NCBI GenBank assembly: GCA_011620605.1
Contig: WOYW01000016.1
Location: forward strand, 248,001 to 312,000
Source of the DNA: Bacteroidales bacterium
GTDB taxonomy: Bacteria; Bacteroidota; Bacteroidia; Bacteroidales; UBA932
Length of the DNA stretch: 64,000 nt
Direction: 5' to 3'
In this document: piece by piece, positions 2,918-37,124 of the stretch
Layout: each line of letters begins with the position of its first letter
Numbering within the stretch: the stretch's first letter is position 1
The notes under the pieces: generated by a model
What the model saw: only the letters and a program-made list of their open reading frames with translations
Database searches by the model: none
What the model was told of the DNA's origin: nothing
Program-made: the position numbers and the translations under genes

Positions 2918-5199
2918 GCTGCAAGTATGTAGGGTAGTTGTAAAGAGACCAAAGTCCCTGTTGTATTGTTTTCTTCATTGTTTAGATCCCCTATGGAATA
3001 GGAATACTCCGAACGCGTCATCTGGTTAATCAGCCGCAATCTGTCTTCAGTCAGTTTCAGGCCGAGTGATTCTTTTTTAAAGCCCGAGACAGACATTTGG
3101 TCTTTCTTTGTTGAAAAGCCAATGCCGTTATCCGTGATCTCGCAATGCAGCTTTCCCTCTTCGGCCTGCAGCCTGATCCGGATGTGGTATTCTTTGCCGT
3201 CCTGCACAAATCCATGTTTAATGGAATTTTCCACGAAAGGCTGCAGGATCAGAGGCGGCACCATGGTTGTCACGGGATCTATCTGGCTGTCCGTTTCAAT
3301 ACTATATGAGAAATCATGCGTATGCCGCATTTTTTCCAGGTCCATATACAGACGCAAAATGTCCAGTTCCCTTTCCAACGGGATCTCTTTTTTGCTCATG
3401 CCCTCCAGCATCATGCGGATCAAATCGGAAAATTTCCTTAAACAGGTCATGGATTCCTTTACTTTGGACTGACCAAGCAGGTATTCCACCGTATGCACGC
3501 AATTGAAAATAAAATGAGGGTTTAACTGGAAATTGATGGCTTTCATATTCGTTTCCACCAACTGACGGCTTAACTCCGCTGCTTCCTGTTTCAAACGTGC
3601 CTCTTCCTTCTTTTTCCTGTTCCTGTAACTGATCAGTATGTAATAAGTAATAACCCCACCGGCTAAAAAGATCAAGACAAAACCAATAATTAAAAACATT
3701 TTCTCTCTTTTCTCCTGCTGCAGTTTCTGCTCCCGCACCTGCTCATTCAGAGTCAGAATATCTATCTGGGTTCTCTGGTATTCCCTTTCTGTATTGGCCA
3801 GTTGCAGGTTCTGCCGGAATTTTTCATGCTCTATGGCAGCCTGCATCAGTTCCAGATTGGCTATACGGTGCTCCTGAGTCAGTTTATCCAGGTCATGCTG
3901 TCTTTTCTCTTTTTCCAGGTTCAATAACGCTATTTCTTTTTCTTTCTTCTCCGAATCGTATTTCTCCTGCATTTCTGCTATTGCCCTGACTGTTTGTTCA
4001 TTGAAAACAGAATCTTTTAATGCGATATACTTTGCCAAATACACATCAACACTGTCCGGTTCATTTAAACGGGCAAACAACCTCACATATCCCTGGAACA
4101 AACGAGACAAGTTGTTTTTGTTTTCACTTTTGTACATTATCAGTTCTGCTTTTTTGCAATATTTCAGAGCCGTTTGATAATCCTTTTTTGCATAATAAAT
4201 ATCAGATATACCACATAAATAAAAATCGATATCTGCTTTGTCTCCTGATTCATTGGCATGGTCAAGACATTTTTGTAAAGTCTCCAACGCTTTGTCAAAT
4301 TCTTTCTTTTCACAATAGAGACGTCCAAGTTGTCCATTTATAAGATTTACAAAATAGTCATTCCCCAACGCGGATAATATGTCCAGGGCTTCCTCTAATG
4401 CCTCAATGGATTTCCCGGGTTCTCCTGATTCATCATAAACAAGTGCCAACCTGTACAACGACACCCCTATACCGTTCTGATCACCCATTCTTTCAAATAT
4501 TTCCTTTGCTTGCTGAGCGTATTGTATTGATTTATCATATTGCTTTAATTGTCTGTAGACTGAAGATATGTTTACAACAGAATATGCCATGTAATATTCT
4601 TCGTGGTTTTCTTCAAAAATAGTATTGGCTTTGAGATAGTATTGAAGTGCCTGTTCATAATCCGATTTCAAGTTATGGATATTTCCTATCCACACATACC
4701 CGCTTGCCAGGCTGATCATTTCTCCTGCATTCAGATAGATATCATTTGATTTCATACGCAGATCCAGTGCCTTGTCAAATTCTCCCTTGTGAACCAGTAT
4801 CATACTGATATTATCCACGGAACTTGCAATACCCAGGGTGTCGTCAATAGCTGTAACCACATCCAAACGCTTTTCAAAGTGAACCATCGCAGAATCAAAT
4901 TTTCCCATACTATGATAAGCAATTCCAATTTGGTTCAGACAAATGCTTATTCCTTTGTCCGATCCCAATTCCTTTGATAATTCCAATCCCTGCTCTGCAT
5001 ATTCAAGAGATATTGAAAGATCAATATTTTCGTAAAGTTCTGATAAAGTGTTCAACGCCATTACTTTTGTTAAATCAGCAGGTGCATTCTCTATAACATT
5101 GATCAACGAATCAATTTTCTGCTGCTGGGCGTGCAGTTTCCCTGAAACCGGACAGAACAAAAACAGAAACCAGAATAGTGAAAAAACTATTTTATTCAT
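2914..5199 (-). CDS. TPR-containing LytS-type sensor histidine kinase
   Basis: This 761-residue protein begins with a signal peptide (residues 1-24, ending around LHAQ). A periplasmic array of TPR repeats follows (~25-390, with repeated YYLKANTIFEE / ALEYCKKAEL-like helices), then a long coiled coil (~400-500), one membrane helix (~503-525), and a cytoplasmic His_kinase/HATPase_c module. The kinase has the LytS-family phospho-histidine motif LNPHFIFN, the N box PFVENSIKHG and the G1 box DNGIGF. The layout is usual for Bacteroidota one-TM sensors, in which the TPR part probably senses a protein or envelope ligand. Its gene is co-transcribed with, and overlaps, the LytTR regulator gene. The signal is not evident from the sequence. 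Confidence 0.9.
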   Translation of the reverse strand: MNKIVFSLFWFLFLFCPVSGKLHAQQQKIDSLINVIENAPADLTKVMALNTLSELYENIDLSISLEYAEQGLELSKELGSDKGISICLNQIGIAYHSMGKFDSAMVHFEKRLDVVTAIDDTLGIASSVDNISMILVHKGEFDKALDLRMKSNDIYLNAGEMISLASGYVWIGNIHNLKSDYEQALQYYLKANTIFEENHEEYYMAYSVVNISSVYRQLKQYDKSIQYAQQAKEIFERMGDQNGIGVSLYRLALVYDESGEPGKSIEALEEALDILSALGNDYFVNLINGQLGRLYCEKKEFDKALETLQKCLDHANESGDKADIDFYLCGISDIYYAKKDYQTALKYCKKAELIMYKSENKNNLSRLFQGYVRLFARLNEPDSVDVYLAKYIALKDSVFNEQTVRAIAEMQEKYDSEKKEKEIALLNLEKEKRQHDLDKLTQEHRIANLELMQAAIEHEKFRQNLQLANTEREYQRTQIDILTLNEQVREQKLQQEKREKMFLIIGFVLIFLAGGVITYYILISYRNRKKKEEARLKQEAAELSRQLVETNMKAINFQLNPHFIFNCVHTVEYLLGQSKVKESMTCLRKFSDLIRMMLEGMSKKEIPLERELDILRLYMDLEKMRHTHDFSYSIETDSQIDPVTTMVPPLILQPFVENSIKHGFVQDGKEYHIRIRLQAEEGKLHCEITDNGIGFSTKKDQMSVSGFKKESLGLKLTEDRLRLINQMTRSEYSYSIGDLNNEENNTTGTLVSLQLPYILAA

Positions 5200-5525
5200 A
5201 AAAAATTTACACGGATAATTCTAATAAATCTAGTGTTTGTATGGTTTCCAGAACAGAATAAACGCTCGTATTATATTGCAACTAATTTCAGCACAATATA
5301 AAAGTTCTTAAAATTGGACAAATTTCCGGTATGAAACAATATTAACGTGTCGAAAAAACAAACGTTATTGTTTGTATTTTCTGACACTTACGCATTTATA
5401 TCTAAATTCTTGCTACACGTTTTGCTGCCCTAATGGCATACCTGCACTCTGGCAGATATTTTGTACCTTTAGTGATCTTACTCAACGCGCAAAAGCGTAC
5501 ATTACTAAATATCTAACATAAACAA
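5200..5525. other. Divergent intergenic region, 326 bp
   Basis: AT-rich region between the leftward kinase gene and the rightward DUF2249 gene, which must hold promoters for both. I see an inverted repeat ACAAAC-GTTATT-GTTTGT (5358-5375) and a -7-like TACCTTTA (5473-5480), but no convincing -33 partner. No coding potential or RNA gene was recognised. Confidence 0.4.
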
Positions 5526-33248: not shown

Positions 33249-33322
33249 GGGCCATTAGCTCAGTTGGCTAGAGCGCTTGCATGGCATGCACGAGGTCGTC
33301 GGTTCGATTCCGACATGGTCCA
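33249..33322 (+). tRNA. tRNA-Ala (anticodon GGC)
   Basis: Acceptor stem GGGCCAT (33249-33255) with ATGGTCC (33315-33321), D arm GCTC/GAGC, anticodon GGC at 33283-33285, T arm 33298-33314 with TTCGATT, discriminator A33322. The anticodon stem has one mismatch: T28 (33277) faces C42 (33291), where the usual sequence TGCAAGAG would give T-A. CCA is not encoded. Confidence 0.93.
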
Positions 33323-33343
33323 CAAAATTAACGTTTAATTACA

Positions 33344-34036
33344 ATGGAAACTAAGAAAAGTCCAAAGGCGAATCTTGAAACCAAGAGAGTTCTTTTTATT
33401 GAAATCGGATTTATTATTGCTCTTCTTGTAGTCCTTGCTGCTTTTGAGTACAAAACTTACGACAAAGACGTAAGCATGCTTACCGCAAACATTCAGCAAG
33501 TTATTGAAGATGAACAGATCCCCATCACCATGGAGACGCCTCCCCCACCCCCTGAAATGCCTAAAGCACCTGTACTTTCAGATGCCATCGAAATTGTTGA
33601 CGATGATATTACCATTGAAGAGGATATTTTTATTGAAACGGAAGACGATGCCAGTTTTGCTATAGAAATTCGCGATTACATTGAATATTCAGCAGAAGAG
33701 GATGTGGAAGAAGAAGAAATTCCCCTAGCCATTGTGGAAGAAAAACCCTCTTTTATGGGCGGTGATGAAAACACATTTACTAAATGGGTTTTTGATCGCA
33801 TAGTCTATCCTGAGGTAGCTAAAGAAAATGGTGTTCAGGGTCGTGTTGTTCTGAGTTTTATTGTTGACTCTGATGGTTACGTCAAAAACGTTACGGTTTT
33901 ACGTGGTGTTGACCCCTCTATAGATAAAGAAGCTGTACGCGTAGTATCTTCCTCTCCCAGATGGAAACCTGGAAGACAACGTGACAAAGCCGTAAGGGTA
34001 CGTTACAATTTTCCCCTGAATTTCCAGCTCAGGTAA
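33344..34036 (+). CDS. TonB energy-transducing protein
   Basis: A 230-residue TonB-family protein. It has an N-terminal cytoplasmic stub rich in Lys, one membrane helix (~22-40, FIEIGFIIALLVVLAAF), a proline stretch (TMETPPPPPEMPKAP), an acidic periplasmic spacer with many Asp/Glu (~80-135), and a C-terminal TonB domain (~150-230: YPEVAKENGVQGRVVLSFIV, then AVRVVSSSPRWKPGRQ). With ExbB/ExbD it would energise TonB-dependent receptors in the outer membrane. A broken second copy lies on the other side of hflX. Confidence 0.92.
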   Translation: METKKSPKANLETKRVLFIEIGFIIALLVVLAAFEYKTYDKDVSMLTANIQQVIEDEQIPITMETPPPPPEMPKAPVLSDAIEIVDDDITIEEDIFIETEDDASFAIEIRDYIEYSAEEDVEEEEIPLAIVEEKPSFMGGDENTFTKWVFDRIVYPEVAKENGVQGRVVLSFIVDSDGYVKNVTVLRGVDPSIDKEAVRVVSSSPRWKPGRQRDKAVRVRYNFPLNFQLR

Positions 34037-34061
34037 TTGCAGATTATTTACCTTTAATCAT

Positions 34062-34092
34062 AAAGCGCTCTTTTATAACGGGCGCTTTTTTT
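34062..34092 (+). terminator. Terminator after tonB
   Basis: AAAGCGCTC (34062-34070) pairs with GGGCGCTTT (34080-34088; one G-T pair) around a 9-nt loop and is followed by a T run. It lies 25 bp past the tonB stop and 14 bp before hflX. Confidence 0.75.
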
Positions 34093-34105
34093 ACAATTTA
34101 TTGCT

Positions 34106-35257
34106 TTGAATACCATAAGAGATAAAGCTGTTTTTGTAGGAATTCTCAGACCGGGTACCGACCCTGTTGTTTTTGAGGAATATCTTGATGAATTGGAATT
34201 CTTGGCAGACACTGCAGGTGTTGATGCCGGCGGTCGTTTCATACAACGGCTTGACAAACCCCATACCAATACATACCTGGGAAGCGGAAAACTTAAAGAA
34301 CTGTCAGCCTATATCAAAGCAGAAGAAATATCCATTGCTATATTTGATGATGAGCTTTCTCCTTCACAACTTCGTAACCTGGAAAAAGAACTTTCTTGTA
34401 AAATATTGGACCGGACCAATCTTATCCTGGATATATTTGCCCAGCGCGCAAAGACCGCTTATGCGAAAACTCAGGTAGAACTGGCTCAGTATCAATACTT
34501 ATTACCACGTCTTACCCGTATGTGGACGCACCTTGAGCGTCAACGCGGCGGTATTGGAATGCGTGGACCCGGAGAATCGCAGCTGGAAACGGACCGCCGG
34601 ATCATACTGGACAAAATTTCAGCACTTAAAGAAAAACTTAAAAGAATTGACCGCCAGATGATCTCTCAACGCGGGAATCGCGGATCACTGGTCCGTATGT
34701 CTTTGGTCGGTTATACCAATGTAGGAAAAAGTACCCTTTTGAATCTTCTGGCCAAAACAGATGTTTTTGCCGAAAACAAACTGTTTGCCACTTTGGATAC
34801 TACGGTTAGGAAAGTGGTTGTTGACAATATTCCTTTTCTTTTAAGCGATACTGTGGGTTTTATCCGCAAACTGCCAACCCAGTTGGTGCAGTCTTTTAAA
34901 AGTACGCTGGATGAAGTGCGTGAAAGTGATGTGCTCATACACGTAGTAGACGTATCTTATCCGAATTTTGAAGAAATGATGCACGTTGTTAATCAGACCC
35001 TGCAGGATATTGGATGTGCAGACAAGCCTGTCTACCTTGTTTTCAATAAAATTGATGCCTACAAGGAAAAAGAAACAGAGGAAGGCCCTGTCGGACTCAC
35101 CGATCTTAAAAATACCTGGATATCAAAAATACATATACCCTGTATTTTTATTTCCGCCAAAGAAAAGATCAACATTGACAAACTCCGTAAAGATCTTTAC
35201 GGGATGGCAGCCGAAGTACAATTGGGACGTTATCCGTTCGGCACTTTTTTGTGGTAA
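34106..35257 (+). CDS. hflX: GTPase HflX
   Basis: A ribosome-associated GTPase of 383 residues: N-terminal HflX domain (LDRTNLILDIFAQRAKT, QYLLPRLTRMWTHLERQRGGIGMRGPGESQLETDRR split here into its two blocks), then a G domain with Walker A GYTNVGKST (~205), DTVGFIRKLP and NKIDAY. The start is probably TTG at 34106 (NTIRDKAVFVGIL); no ATG gives a sensible N-terminus and the terminator lies just upstream. HflX rescues stalled or heat-damaged ribosomes in other bacteria. Confidence 0.94.
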   Translation: MNTIRDKAVFVGILRPGTDPVVFEEYLDELEFLADTAGVDAGGRFIQRLDKPHTNTYLGSGKLKELSAYIKAEEISIAIFDDELSPSQLRNLEKELSCKILDRTNLILDIFAQRAKTAYAKTQVELAQYQYLLPRLTRMWTHLERQRGGIGMRGPGESQLETDRRIILDKISALKEKLKRIDRQMISQRGNRGSLVRMSLVGYTNVGKSTLLNLLAKTDVFAENKLFATLDTTVRKVVVDNIPFLLSDTVGFIRKLPTQLVQSFKSTLDEVRESDVLIHVVDVSYPNFEEMMHVVNQTLQDIGCADKPVYLVFNKIDAYKEKETEEGPVGLTDLKNTWISKIHIPCIFISAKEKINIDKLRKDLYGMAAEVQLGRYPFGTFLW

Positions 35258-35339
35258 ACTTGTTTGCCAAATATTAACACGCTGATATCAAGTGTTTTAA
35301 ATGTTTTTTTGGCATGTTTTTTGCAAATATTTGATTAGT

Positions 35340-35351
35340 GACAATATTGTC
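35340..35351. promoter_or_regulatory. 12-bp perfect palindrome upstream of the tonB pseudogene
   Basis: GACAATATTGTC, 20 bp before the ATG of the broken tonB copy. It may be an operator left from the intact gene. No such palindrome was noticed in front of the working copy. Confidence 0.3.
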
Positions 35352-35371
35352 CTGATCAAAGCTCTGAAGCC

Positions 35372-35833
35372 ATGAAAACAAAGAAAAGCCTTAAAGCAGA
35401 TCTTGAAAACAAGAGAGTTCTGTTTATTGAGATCGGGCTGGTCATTGCTCTCGCTATAGTTCTTGGAGCCTTTGAATACAAGACGTATGAGAGAAATGTC
35501 AGCATGATCACAGCTAATATACAGCAGGTGATTGAAGAATAACAGATCCGCATAACCATGGAGACGCCGCCGCCACCGCCGGAAGCCCCTAAAACACCGG
35601 TTCTTTCAGATGCGATTGAAATCGTAGATGACGATATAGTTATTGAGGAAGACATCTTTATTGAGACGGAAGACGATGCCTCATTTGAGGTAGAGATACG
35701 TGACTATATTGATTACCAAGAGGAAGAGGCTGTGGAAGAAGAAGAAATTCCTTTAGCCATTGTTGAAGAAAAACCCTCTTTTATGTCCGGATCTTTGCGG
35801 AAATTTAACACTTGCGTTGCTGAACATTTTTGA
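35372..35833 (+). pseudogene. Second tonB copy: nonsense mutation and 3' truncation
   Basis: From ATG 35372 the translation follows the working TonB 2 kb upstream closely: MKTKKSLKADLENKRVLFIE, the same membrane helix, TANIQQVIEE, then TAA at 35540-35542 where the intact copy has a Glu codon. Beyond the stop the same frame continues with TMETPPPPPEAPKTP and the acidic spacer as far as EEKPSFM (35785), after which the sequence is unrelated and the TonB C-terminal domain is gone. An internal ATG at 35558 could still give a fragment, but without membrane anchor or TonB domain. The copy pair flanks hflX. Confidence 0.88.
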
Positions 35834-36476
35834 AGTTTCCTGCGCAAGAGGGGGCGGTATGTAATGATCCTGCATGCCAAAAATAAAAGAAACTGGAATT
35901 GTTGCGGTTTTTAGAAAAATCCGGTAAGAAGGTCTTTCTTTCATCCCTTCCAGACTGGCTTCTATTCCGGCCGGATCGTGTACCTGTGCCTGTGCAATTG
36001 TGTTTTCTATCACAGAGGCCATCTTATTCCTGTTTTGAGGAGCATACATAAGGGGAACCGCCTCTTCAGCCACCTGATTCAATTTACCTTTTTTTTTCAG
36101 AGCAATATCCCTGTCCCGGGCTGCTTTCTTTTCCTCGTTGTCCGGATAGGGCAATGAGTGCATAAGAATGAGTTTATTTACCACATGGGGATACTTTTGG
36201 CAAAATGCCTGTGCCACATAACCCCACCATGGAATGCCCTGCCACAATAACCTTTTCAATGTTTTGTTTCTGCAAATAAGCACAGATAACATCTGCCTGT
36301 TTTTCCATATGATTTACATCAAAAGTGCCGCTGAGGCCATGCCCGGGAAGGTCCGGTGCAATTGTGCGAAACGATCCGTCAAGCAATACGCGGAACGAAT
36401 CCCATATTTCGTGGGTTTCCAGGTATCCGTGAAGCAGCACCAAAGAAATTTTTTCAAGCATGTAAATCGCGTTCAT
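35753..36476 (-). pseudogene. Alpha/beta hydrolase, frameshifted and C-terminally truncated
   Basis: ATG 36476 (MNAIYMLEKISLVLLHGYLE) opens an alpha/beta-hydrolase with oxyanion motif LLHGYLETHEIWD, then PDLPGHGLS and the nucleophile elbow VIVAGHSM (Ser). Right after the elbow the frame breaks within 36222-36228: seven bases (GTGGGGT) stand where six are needed for GHSM-GG-YVAQAF, and the remaining part (YVAQAFCQKYPHVVNKLILMHS ... SFIFGMQDHYIPP) is in the next frame. The C-terminus reaches the catalytic-His motif SGH at 35783-35791 and then runs into the antisense of the tonB pseudogene. So the gene has two separate lesions. The substrate of the ancestral enzyme is unknown. Confidence 0.85.
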
Positions 36477-36506
36477 ATTGTTTTTTTTATAATTTTGCAC
36501 TAATCT

Positions 36507-37124
36507 ATGCCGGTTCTTAACAATAAGCGGATCCCAGGGATTTTTACGGTCGCAGCTGTATTGATCCTTGCTTTGTACGGATGTAGCGGCAATCCTGCTA
36601 AATTCGTGGAAAATTCATTTGTGGGCACATGGCACATTGACACTTCAAGAGTCAGCGTATCTGTGTCTGTAGATGCAGGAGATGCTTCCGATCTCCAGGT
36701 TTTTTTGCCGTTCATTACCGATAATTATCAAAACATCCGCCTGCTTCTAAAAGAGCCTAAAACCATCAGCGTGGCACAATCTTCAGTTGAAAATCCATAT
36801 ACCGGTATTTATTCACTGGTCTTTTCCTCCGGGAATGTATATACAAGTTCTTACAAATTGGTCCGTAATATTTTATTTCTTAATCTTTCGGATAAATCTG
36901 GTCAGGATTTCACCATACCCTGCCAGGCAGATGGCAACACCTTGCAGATCCTGTATTCTACGCCCTATATGAAAGCACTTATAAGGGATTTTATTGAAGA
37001 AAATTATCCTGCCGAAGCCCAAGATTTTATATCTGTGCTTTCTTCCATTACAGTGACTATTGAAGGTCTGAGCGTTTACAGTACAAGAACTCGCGATTCA
37101 GGCGGGCAATATTTGCAACCGTGA
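36507..37124 (+). CDS. Lipocalin-like lipoprotein (DUF4923-type)
   Basis: A 205-residue lipoprotein with signal peptide and lipobox (VLILALYGCSG, Cys ~27) followed by FVGTWHIDTSRVSV, the GxW start typical of lipocalin-like/DUF4923 proteins of Bacteroidota. The rest alternates beta strands (YTSSYKLVRNILFLNL). It is likely anchored to the outer membrane; its ligand is unknown. The last 68 bp overlap the 3' end of the convergent fumarate reductase B gene. A -7-like TAATTTTG at 36490-36497 would place transcription only a few bases before the ATG. Confidence 0.8.
   Translation: MPVLNNKRIPGIFTVAAVLILALYGCSGNPAKFVENSFVGTWHIDTSRVSVSVSVDAGDASDLQVFLPFITDNYQNIRLLLKEPKTISVAQSSVENPYTGIYSLVFSSGNVYTSSYKLVRNILFLNLSDKSGQDFTIPCQADGNTLQILYSTPYMKALIRDFIEENYPAEAQDFISVLSSITVTIEGLSVYSTRTRDSGGQYLQP

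What the first reader, a model, noticed from the sequence alone, without database searches (positions are those of the whole stretch)
35372..36476. Tail-to-tail fusion of two broken genes, with the join at a catalytic-His codon
The second tonB copy matches the first until 35785, and the antiparallel hydrolase reads correctly up to its SGH motif at 35783-35791. The two unrelated genes therefore meet within about 8 bp, each having lost its 3' end (TonB domain; ~20 C-terminal residues). This is a deletion or inversion breakpoint between convergent genes. Both genes carry another lesion elsewhere (a stop at 35540, a frameshift at 36222-36228).
Basis: seen in the sequence. Interest (0 to 1): 0.5.

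Follow-up and report, generated by a model that had tools for sequence, protein, structure and literature searches.

The report
Deletion fusing two dead convergent genes
A deletion of roughly 320 bases in an uncultured Bacteroidales bacterium removed the adjoining tail ends of a spare tonB copy and a neighbouring hydrolase gene, leaving two recently dead gene remnants stuck tail to tail; this is ordinary gene decay, though the same tonB copy seems to be lost repeatedly in sister species.

Summary
Window 35372-35785 is the first 138 codons of a second tonB, without its TonB_C domain. It abuts an antiparallel alpha/beta-hydrolase that ends at its SGH motif. The sister genome G003 has both genes intact, convergent, overlapping by 8 bp. 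Against it the window lacks 319 bp: 92 tonB codons plus stop, and the hydrolase's last 14 residues plus stop. So it is a deletion; in the host assembly the missing stretch matches only the paralogous tonB1, which argues against an inversion. The join shares only 2-3 bp, too little for an assembler to invent. Reads could not be checked. Neither gene shows clear relaxed selection (tonB2 dN/dS 0.02 against G003), so I infer recent death. In the 13 genus genomes held, tonB2 is intact in 3, broken in 3, absent in 6 and off-contig in 1; on my tree that needs at least 7 inactivations if it was gained once. Ordinary pseudogene formation, at a site of recurrent loss.

The parts
33344..34036 (+). tonB1, intact parental copy (230 aa, TonB_C domain)
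   Evidence: Pfam PF03544 E 6.4e-20; full-length match at 80-95% identity in 12 of 12 other genus genomes
34106..35257 (+). hflX-type GTPase between the two tonB copies, intact
   Evidence: GTP-bdg_N, GTP-bdg_M, MMR_HSR1; 91% identical in G003
35310..35325 (+). sigma-54-like (GG-N10-GC) motif upstream of tonB2; tentative
   Evidence: A relaxed form ([T/A]GGCA[C/T]-N5-TTGC) lies upstream of tonB2 in 6 of 6 genomes that have tonB2, the window included; the exact pattern is not above its reversed control genome-wide, 4 vs 3
35372..35785 (+). tonB2 remnant: codons 1-138 of the paralog, without TonB_C domain; in-frame stop at 35540-35542
   Evidence: 78% to tonB1 DNA, 1 TAA; full-length ortholog in G003, L033
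35540..35542 (+). in-frame stop codon in tonB2
35783..35786 (.). deletion join: tonB2 side ends at 35785, hydrolase side begins at 35786; 2-3 bp (TG, or ATG/CAT) could belong to either
   Evidence: alignment to G003 and flank comparison, 319 bp missing
35783..36500 (-). alpha/beta-hydrolase remnant, ends at SGH; lacks the last 14 residues and the stop relative to G003
   Evidence: Abhydrolase_6 E 9.6e-11 for the first piece; 265-aa intact ortholog in G003; alignment of the two pieces apart
36222..36229 (-). one-base frameshift directly after GHSM in the hydrolase
36440..36455 (-). site of a 36-bp in-frame deletion (12 residues) near the hydrolase N-terminus; approximate position
   Evidence: gap in the window only, filled in 6 of 6 other hydrolases; 36 bp of gaps in the DNA alignment to G003
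36507..37124 (+). intact neighbour (205 aa; lipoprotein-like by eye), right-hand anchor of the locus
   Evidence: 86% identical in G003; no Pfam match

Best explanation
A duplicate tonB (tonB2) lay between hflX and a convergent alpha/beta-hydrolase, its stop overlapping the hydrolase's stop by 8 bp (shown in G003, inferred for the window's ancestor). In the window's lineage a deletion of about 319 bp with 2-3 bp of microhomology (illegitimate recombination or replication slippage; mechanism inferred) removed both 3' ends. It took codons 139-230 of tonB2, with the TonB_C domain, and the hydrolase's residues after the SGH His, and fused the remnants tail to tail. Each remnant now reads a short way into the other's antisense strand (15 and 9 codons) and stops. 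Separate lesions (an in-frame stop, a frameshift, a 36-bp deletion) show that both genes are dead. The order of the lesions cannot be told. tonB1 presumably covers the TonB function.
For: G003 has both genes intact in the same place with overlapping 3' ends. The arrangement recurs in G011, with the hydrolase intact and tonB2 broken by other lesions. The missing 319 bp matches the host assembly only at tonB1, 78%. The join shares 2-3 bp only, and the 5 bases right after the join occur nowhere in 33344-35785 (nothing printed). The neighbours tonB1, hflX, the 205-aa gene, sdhB and sdhA match G003 over essentially their whole length, and the rest of the window largely tiles with open frames. In the genus tonB2 is also broken in G011 and G012 and absent in six others. 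The read-through lengths are from the ORFs.
Against: No reads could be checked, and the named relatives are all MAG records, so the window is probably a MAG too and a chimera is not formally excluded. Constraint has hardly relaxed: tonB2 dN/dS is 0.021 against G003, and the hydrolase differs at 1 of 24 and 0 of 22 columns invariant in 6 others. I read this as recent death, but wrongly assembled intact genes would look the same. Four lesions with so little excess substitution is the least comfortable point.
Confidence: 0.92

Rival explanations
1. Assembly or binning chimera: two gene fragments joined wrongly, with sequence errors giving the stop and the frameshift.
For: Both genes look constrained right up to the lesions; the join sits at the end of a 21-bp run shared by the two tonB copies.
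Against: A wrong join would need sequence shared between tonB and the hydrolase, and there are only 2-3 bp. Four lesions fall in one 1.1-kb stretch while the rest of the window largely tiles with open frames. Relatives independently show broken or missing tonB2 at this site.
Confidence: 0.05
2. Inversion or translocation breakpoint rather than deletion.
Against: The lost 3' ends were not found elsewhere in the assembly, and the flanking genes keep the order and orientation of G003. The assembly is 94.5% complete, so a small gap in this argument remains.
Confidence: 0.02
3. The short genes are functional new forms (a truncated TonB N-terminal peptide, or a read-through product).
For: tonB2 dN/dS of 0.021 over 137 codons against G003; the upstream motif is kept.
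Against: The in-frame stop lies upstream of the truncation; none of the 11 other genus genomes that reach the site has the short form; low pairwise dN/dS mostly reflects the history before the lesions.
Confidence: 0.03

Closest known systems
Young bacterial pseudogenes removed by deletion (Kuo and Ochman 2010, PMC2916853; abstract and list of sections seen)
   Same: Recently inactivated genes on the way to removal by deletion.
   Different: That study is on Salmonella; here two unrelated convergent genes were truncated by one deletion.
Convergent (tail-to-tail) overlapping gene pairs in prokaryotes (PMC2174442; passages seen)
   Same: The intact pair in G003 and G011 overlaps by 8 bp at the 3' ends.
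   Different: In the window the overlap is gone and both genes are truncated.
TonB energy-transducer family with TonB_C domain (PF03544)
   Same: tonB1 is a member by Pfam; the full-length tonB2 of relatives aligns to it over its whole length.
   Different: The window's tonB2 has lost the defining C-terminal domain.

Membership tests
Pseudogene: tonB2 | Homologous to an intact gene but with disabling lesions | tested here: met
   In-frame stop, and loss of 92 codons plus stop, against the intact G003 ortholog
Pseudogene: hydrolase | Homologous to an intact gene but with disabling lesions | tested here: met
   Frameshift, 36-bp deletion and loss of 14 residues plus stop, against the 265-aa G003 ortholog
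Pseudogene (both) | Relaxed selection (raised dN/dS); usual in older pseudogenes, not required in young ones | tested here: inconclusive
   Not seen: tonB2 0.021; hydrolase pieces 0.081 and 0.194 against 0.197 and 0.193 for the intact pair G003-G011; residues unique to the window vs unique to G003 6:3 and 12:9. dS is near saturation; too young to show, on my reading
TonB protein (functional) | TonB_C domain PF03544 | tested here: not met
   Neither tonB2 piece has a Pfam match
Alpha/beta-hydrolase (functional) | GHSMGG and SGH motifs in one open frame with a full C-terminus | tested here: not met
   Frameshift after GHSM, C-terminus cut at SGH; catalytic roles are recalled
Deletion breakpoint | Intervening sequence of a relative missing, flanks collinear with it | tested here: met
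   319 bp missing, flanks collinear with G003
Deletion breakpoint | Reads span the join | not testable with these tools
   No reads held

The most novel reading that the evidence does not exclude
tonB2 is a duplicate that some lineages keep, partly by gene conversion with tonB1, while others lose it again and again at one convergent overlapping junction: a natural series of the same loss at different stages (intact, frameshifted, stop plus tail-to-tail deletion, fully erased) that would let the pace and order of duplicate loss be read in one genus.
Probability: 0.35. Interest if true: 0.3.

Novelty: new member of a known kind. Interest (0 to 1): 0.2.

Why it matters
One deletion truncating two convergent genes at once is an expected hazard of overlapping 3' ends, and here it is seen with the intact arrangement still present in a sister species. 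The repeated loss of tonB2 in the genus makes a small natural series for studying how redundant transport genes are purged. By itself it changes no established view.

Tried and rejected
Inversion: the lost stretch was not found elsewhere in the assembly. Misassembly at a shared word: the join has too little shared sequence. Old decay: dN/dS and invariant columns give no sign of long neutrality. A remnant of the tonB2 promoter in G005: the 16-bp match was reached by 23 of 300 shuffles, so I do not claim it; of the 9 gaps tested only G006 and G002 (hydrolase N-terminal end) beat all 300 shuffles, and the others (G001, G004, G005, G008, G009, G010, G012) were reached by 3 to 179 of 300. Those shuffles kept base make-up only. 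Sigma-54 control of tonB2: the relaxed motif is in 6 of 6 tonB2 loci, but the exact pattern is not above control genome-wide (4 vs 3), and the similar motif upstream of tonB1 lies inside the ybeY reading frame, so it may be codon constraint; left as a lead. All tonB2 copies as one clade: rejected by the AU test (p 0.004, 6 rows against 16), which I read as gene conversion or a second duplication in the G004/G012 lineage; the bootstrap had not settled and the sequences are short. Paper searches: the listings (12 of 21 shown; 1 of 1; 2 of 2; 10 of 19 shown) held nothing on this locus by title and start of abstract; (6 of 47 shown) gave the pseudogene paper.

Correction of my own notes: an earlier count said 80 codons and 18 residues were lost and that G005 keeps a promoter remnant. 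The recount gives 92 codons and 14 residues, and one search does not bear out the remnant; this report is right where they differ.

Full report
What was claimed.

Check. tonB1 (33344-34036) carries a TonB_C domain. The second copy, 35372-35785, matches it at 78% in DNA with one in-frame stop at 35540-35542; the last exact shared run, 21 bp, ends exactly at 35785. From 35786 on, the sequence is the minus-strand end of an alpha/beta-hydrolase (first piece: Abhydrolase_6, E 9.6e-11) that stops being hydrolase at SGH; the His codon and the tonB Met codon are the same three bases. A one-base frameshift lies at about 36222-36229. A fourth lesion is a 12-residue in-frame gap near the hydrolase start, filled in 6 of 6 other hydrolases.

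Relatives. The collection holds 13 genomes of the genus, the window's included, and all were searched. G003 is the window's sister on a tree of ybeY, hflX, sdhA and sdhB; rows are incomplete for some genomes (G007 has ybeY alone, because its contig ends, and G011's sdhA entered with its best piece only).

The intact state. G003 has ybeY, tonB1, hflX, tonB2, hydrolase (convergent), the 205-aa gene, sdhB and sdhA in one order. Its tonB2 stop is at 3747-3749 and its hydrolase stop at 3742-3744 of the reversed locus, an 8-bp overlap. G011 shows the same 8-bp overlap, read by eye. Against G003 the window lacks 319 bp, positions 3471-3789: tonB2 codons 139-230 plus stop and, on the other strand, the 14 residues after the His plus stop. 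The flanks share TG at the join with G003, or ATG if the window's ancestor had a CAT His codon. So little microhomology is common by chance and does not by itself identify the mechanism.

Deletion, not inversion or artefact. The 319 bp used as a query hits the host assembly (94.5% complete) once, at tonB1, 78% identity. An assembler needs a shared word to make a false join, and 2-3 bp will not do (inference). The neighbouring genes align to G003 over essentially their whole length, and this is the only stretch of 33-44 kb without one long frame per gene in the ORF tiling (not a gene-by-gene test of the whole window).

Age. Between window and G003, tonB2 has dN 0.032, dS 1.47 and dN/dS 0.021 over 137 codons; the same part of tonB1 has 0.035. 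dS is near saturation, so these ratios are rough. The two hydrolase pieces have 0.081 and 0.194, against 0.197 and 0.193 for the intact pair G003-G011; residues unique to the window against those unique to G003 are 6:3 and 12:9, and of columns invariant in the 6 others the window changes 1 of 24 and 0 of 22. There is no clear relaxation, so I infer that both genes died recently. This is the result that least suits a simple picture of decayed genes: four lesions, hardly any excess substitution.

Genus pattern. tonB2 is intact in G002, G003 and G004; broken in the window, G011 and G012; absent between hflX and the next gene in G001, G005, G006, G008, G009 and G010; G007's contig ends before the site. 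The hydrolase is intact in G003, G010 and G011, broken in the window, and missing at the site in the other 8 genomes that reach it. Remnants of its N-terminal end remain in G006 and G002 (0 of 300 base-shuffles reach the match; 7 other gaps tested gave nothing clear). So the same pair was cut by different deletions in G006 and G002. On the tree, if tonB2 was gained once after G010 split off, at least 7 inactivations are needed; for the hydrolase, present at the root, at least 2. Several nodes are weakly supported and the single gain is an assumption, so 7 may come down. Of 8 family outgroup loci, 4 (G022, G023, G027, G034) have hflX and the hydrolase with no tonB match between them. G026 has hflX inverted, also with no tonB between. 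G015 has no hydrolase there, and G029 and G016 contigs end too early. G034 has two further tonB copies, upstream of ybeY.

Origin of the copy. The tonB2 copies do not form one clade: G004_2 and G012_2 group with tonB1 copies of their own lineage (AU p 0.004), and G004's two copies are closer at synonymous sites (dS 0.80) than, for example, the tonB1 orthologs of G002 and G004 (1.21). Gene conversion or a second duplication would explain this. A tRNA-Ala gene ends 20 bp upstream of tonB1 in the window. tRNA-like sequence lies upstream of tonB2 in G011 (called tRNA-Arg, TCG) and, degraded, in G002 (by eye; ARAGORN calls nothing there). This suggests that the duplicated unit may have included the tRNA.

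Verdict. Kuo and Ochman (abstract) describe the general process; PMC2174442 (passages) treats convergent overlaps. Ordinary, well resolved, low to moderate interest.

Noticed in passing
33249-33323 and 33344 (window); L037 (G011) and L034 (G002) between hflX and tonB2: tRNA-Ala (GGC) ends 20 bp upstream of tonB1, and tRNA-like sequence (called tRNA-Arg TCG in G011; degraded, by eye only, in G002) lies upstream of tonB2 in two relatives, as if tRNA and tonB had been duplicated together.
   Followed up: partly
35310-35325 (window): Sigma-54-like motif upstream of tonB2, in relaxed form in 6 of 6 tonB2 loci; a Sigma54_DBD match is present in 13 of 13 genus genomes, but the exact pattern is not above control genome-wide.
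   Followed up: partly
L041 (G001), between hflX and sdhB, about 3200-3320 in the reversed-to-tonB orientation: A long inverted repeat stands where tonB2 and the 205-aa gene would be; perhaps a small mobile or REP-like element (by eye).
   Followed up: no
L035/L036 (G004, G012) tonB copies: tonB2 of these genomes groups with tonB1 of their own lineage rather than with other tonB2 copies, suggesting gene conversion or a second duplication.
   Followed up: partly
5200-5525 (window): A 326-bp gap without a long ORF, the only gap over 300 bp in the window's ORF tiling.
   Followed up: no
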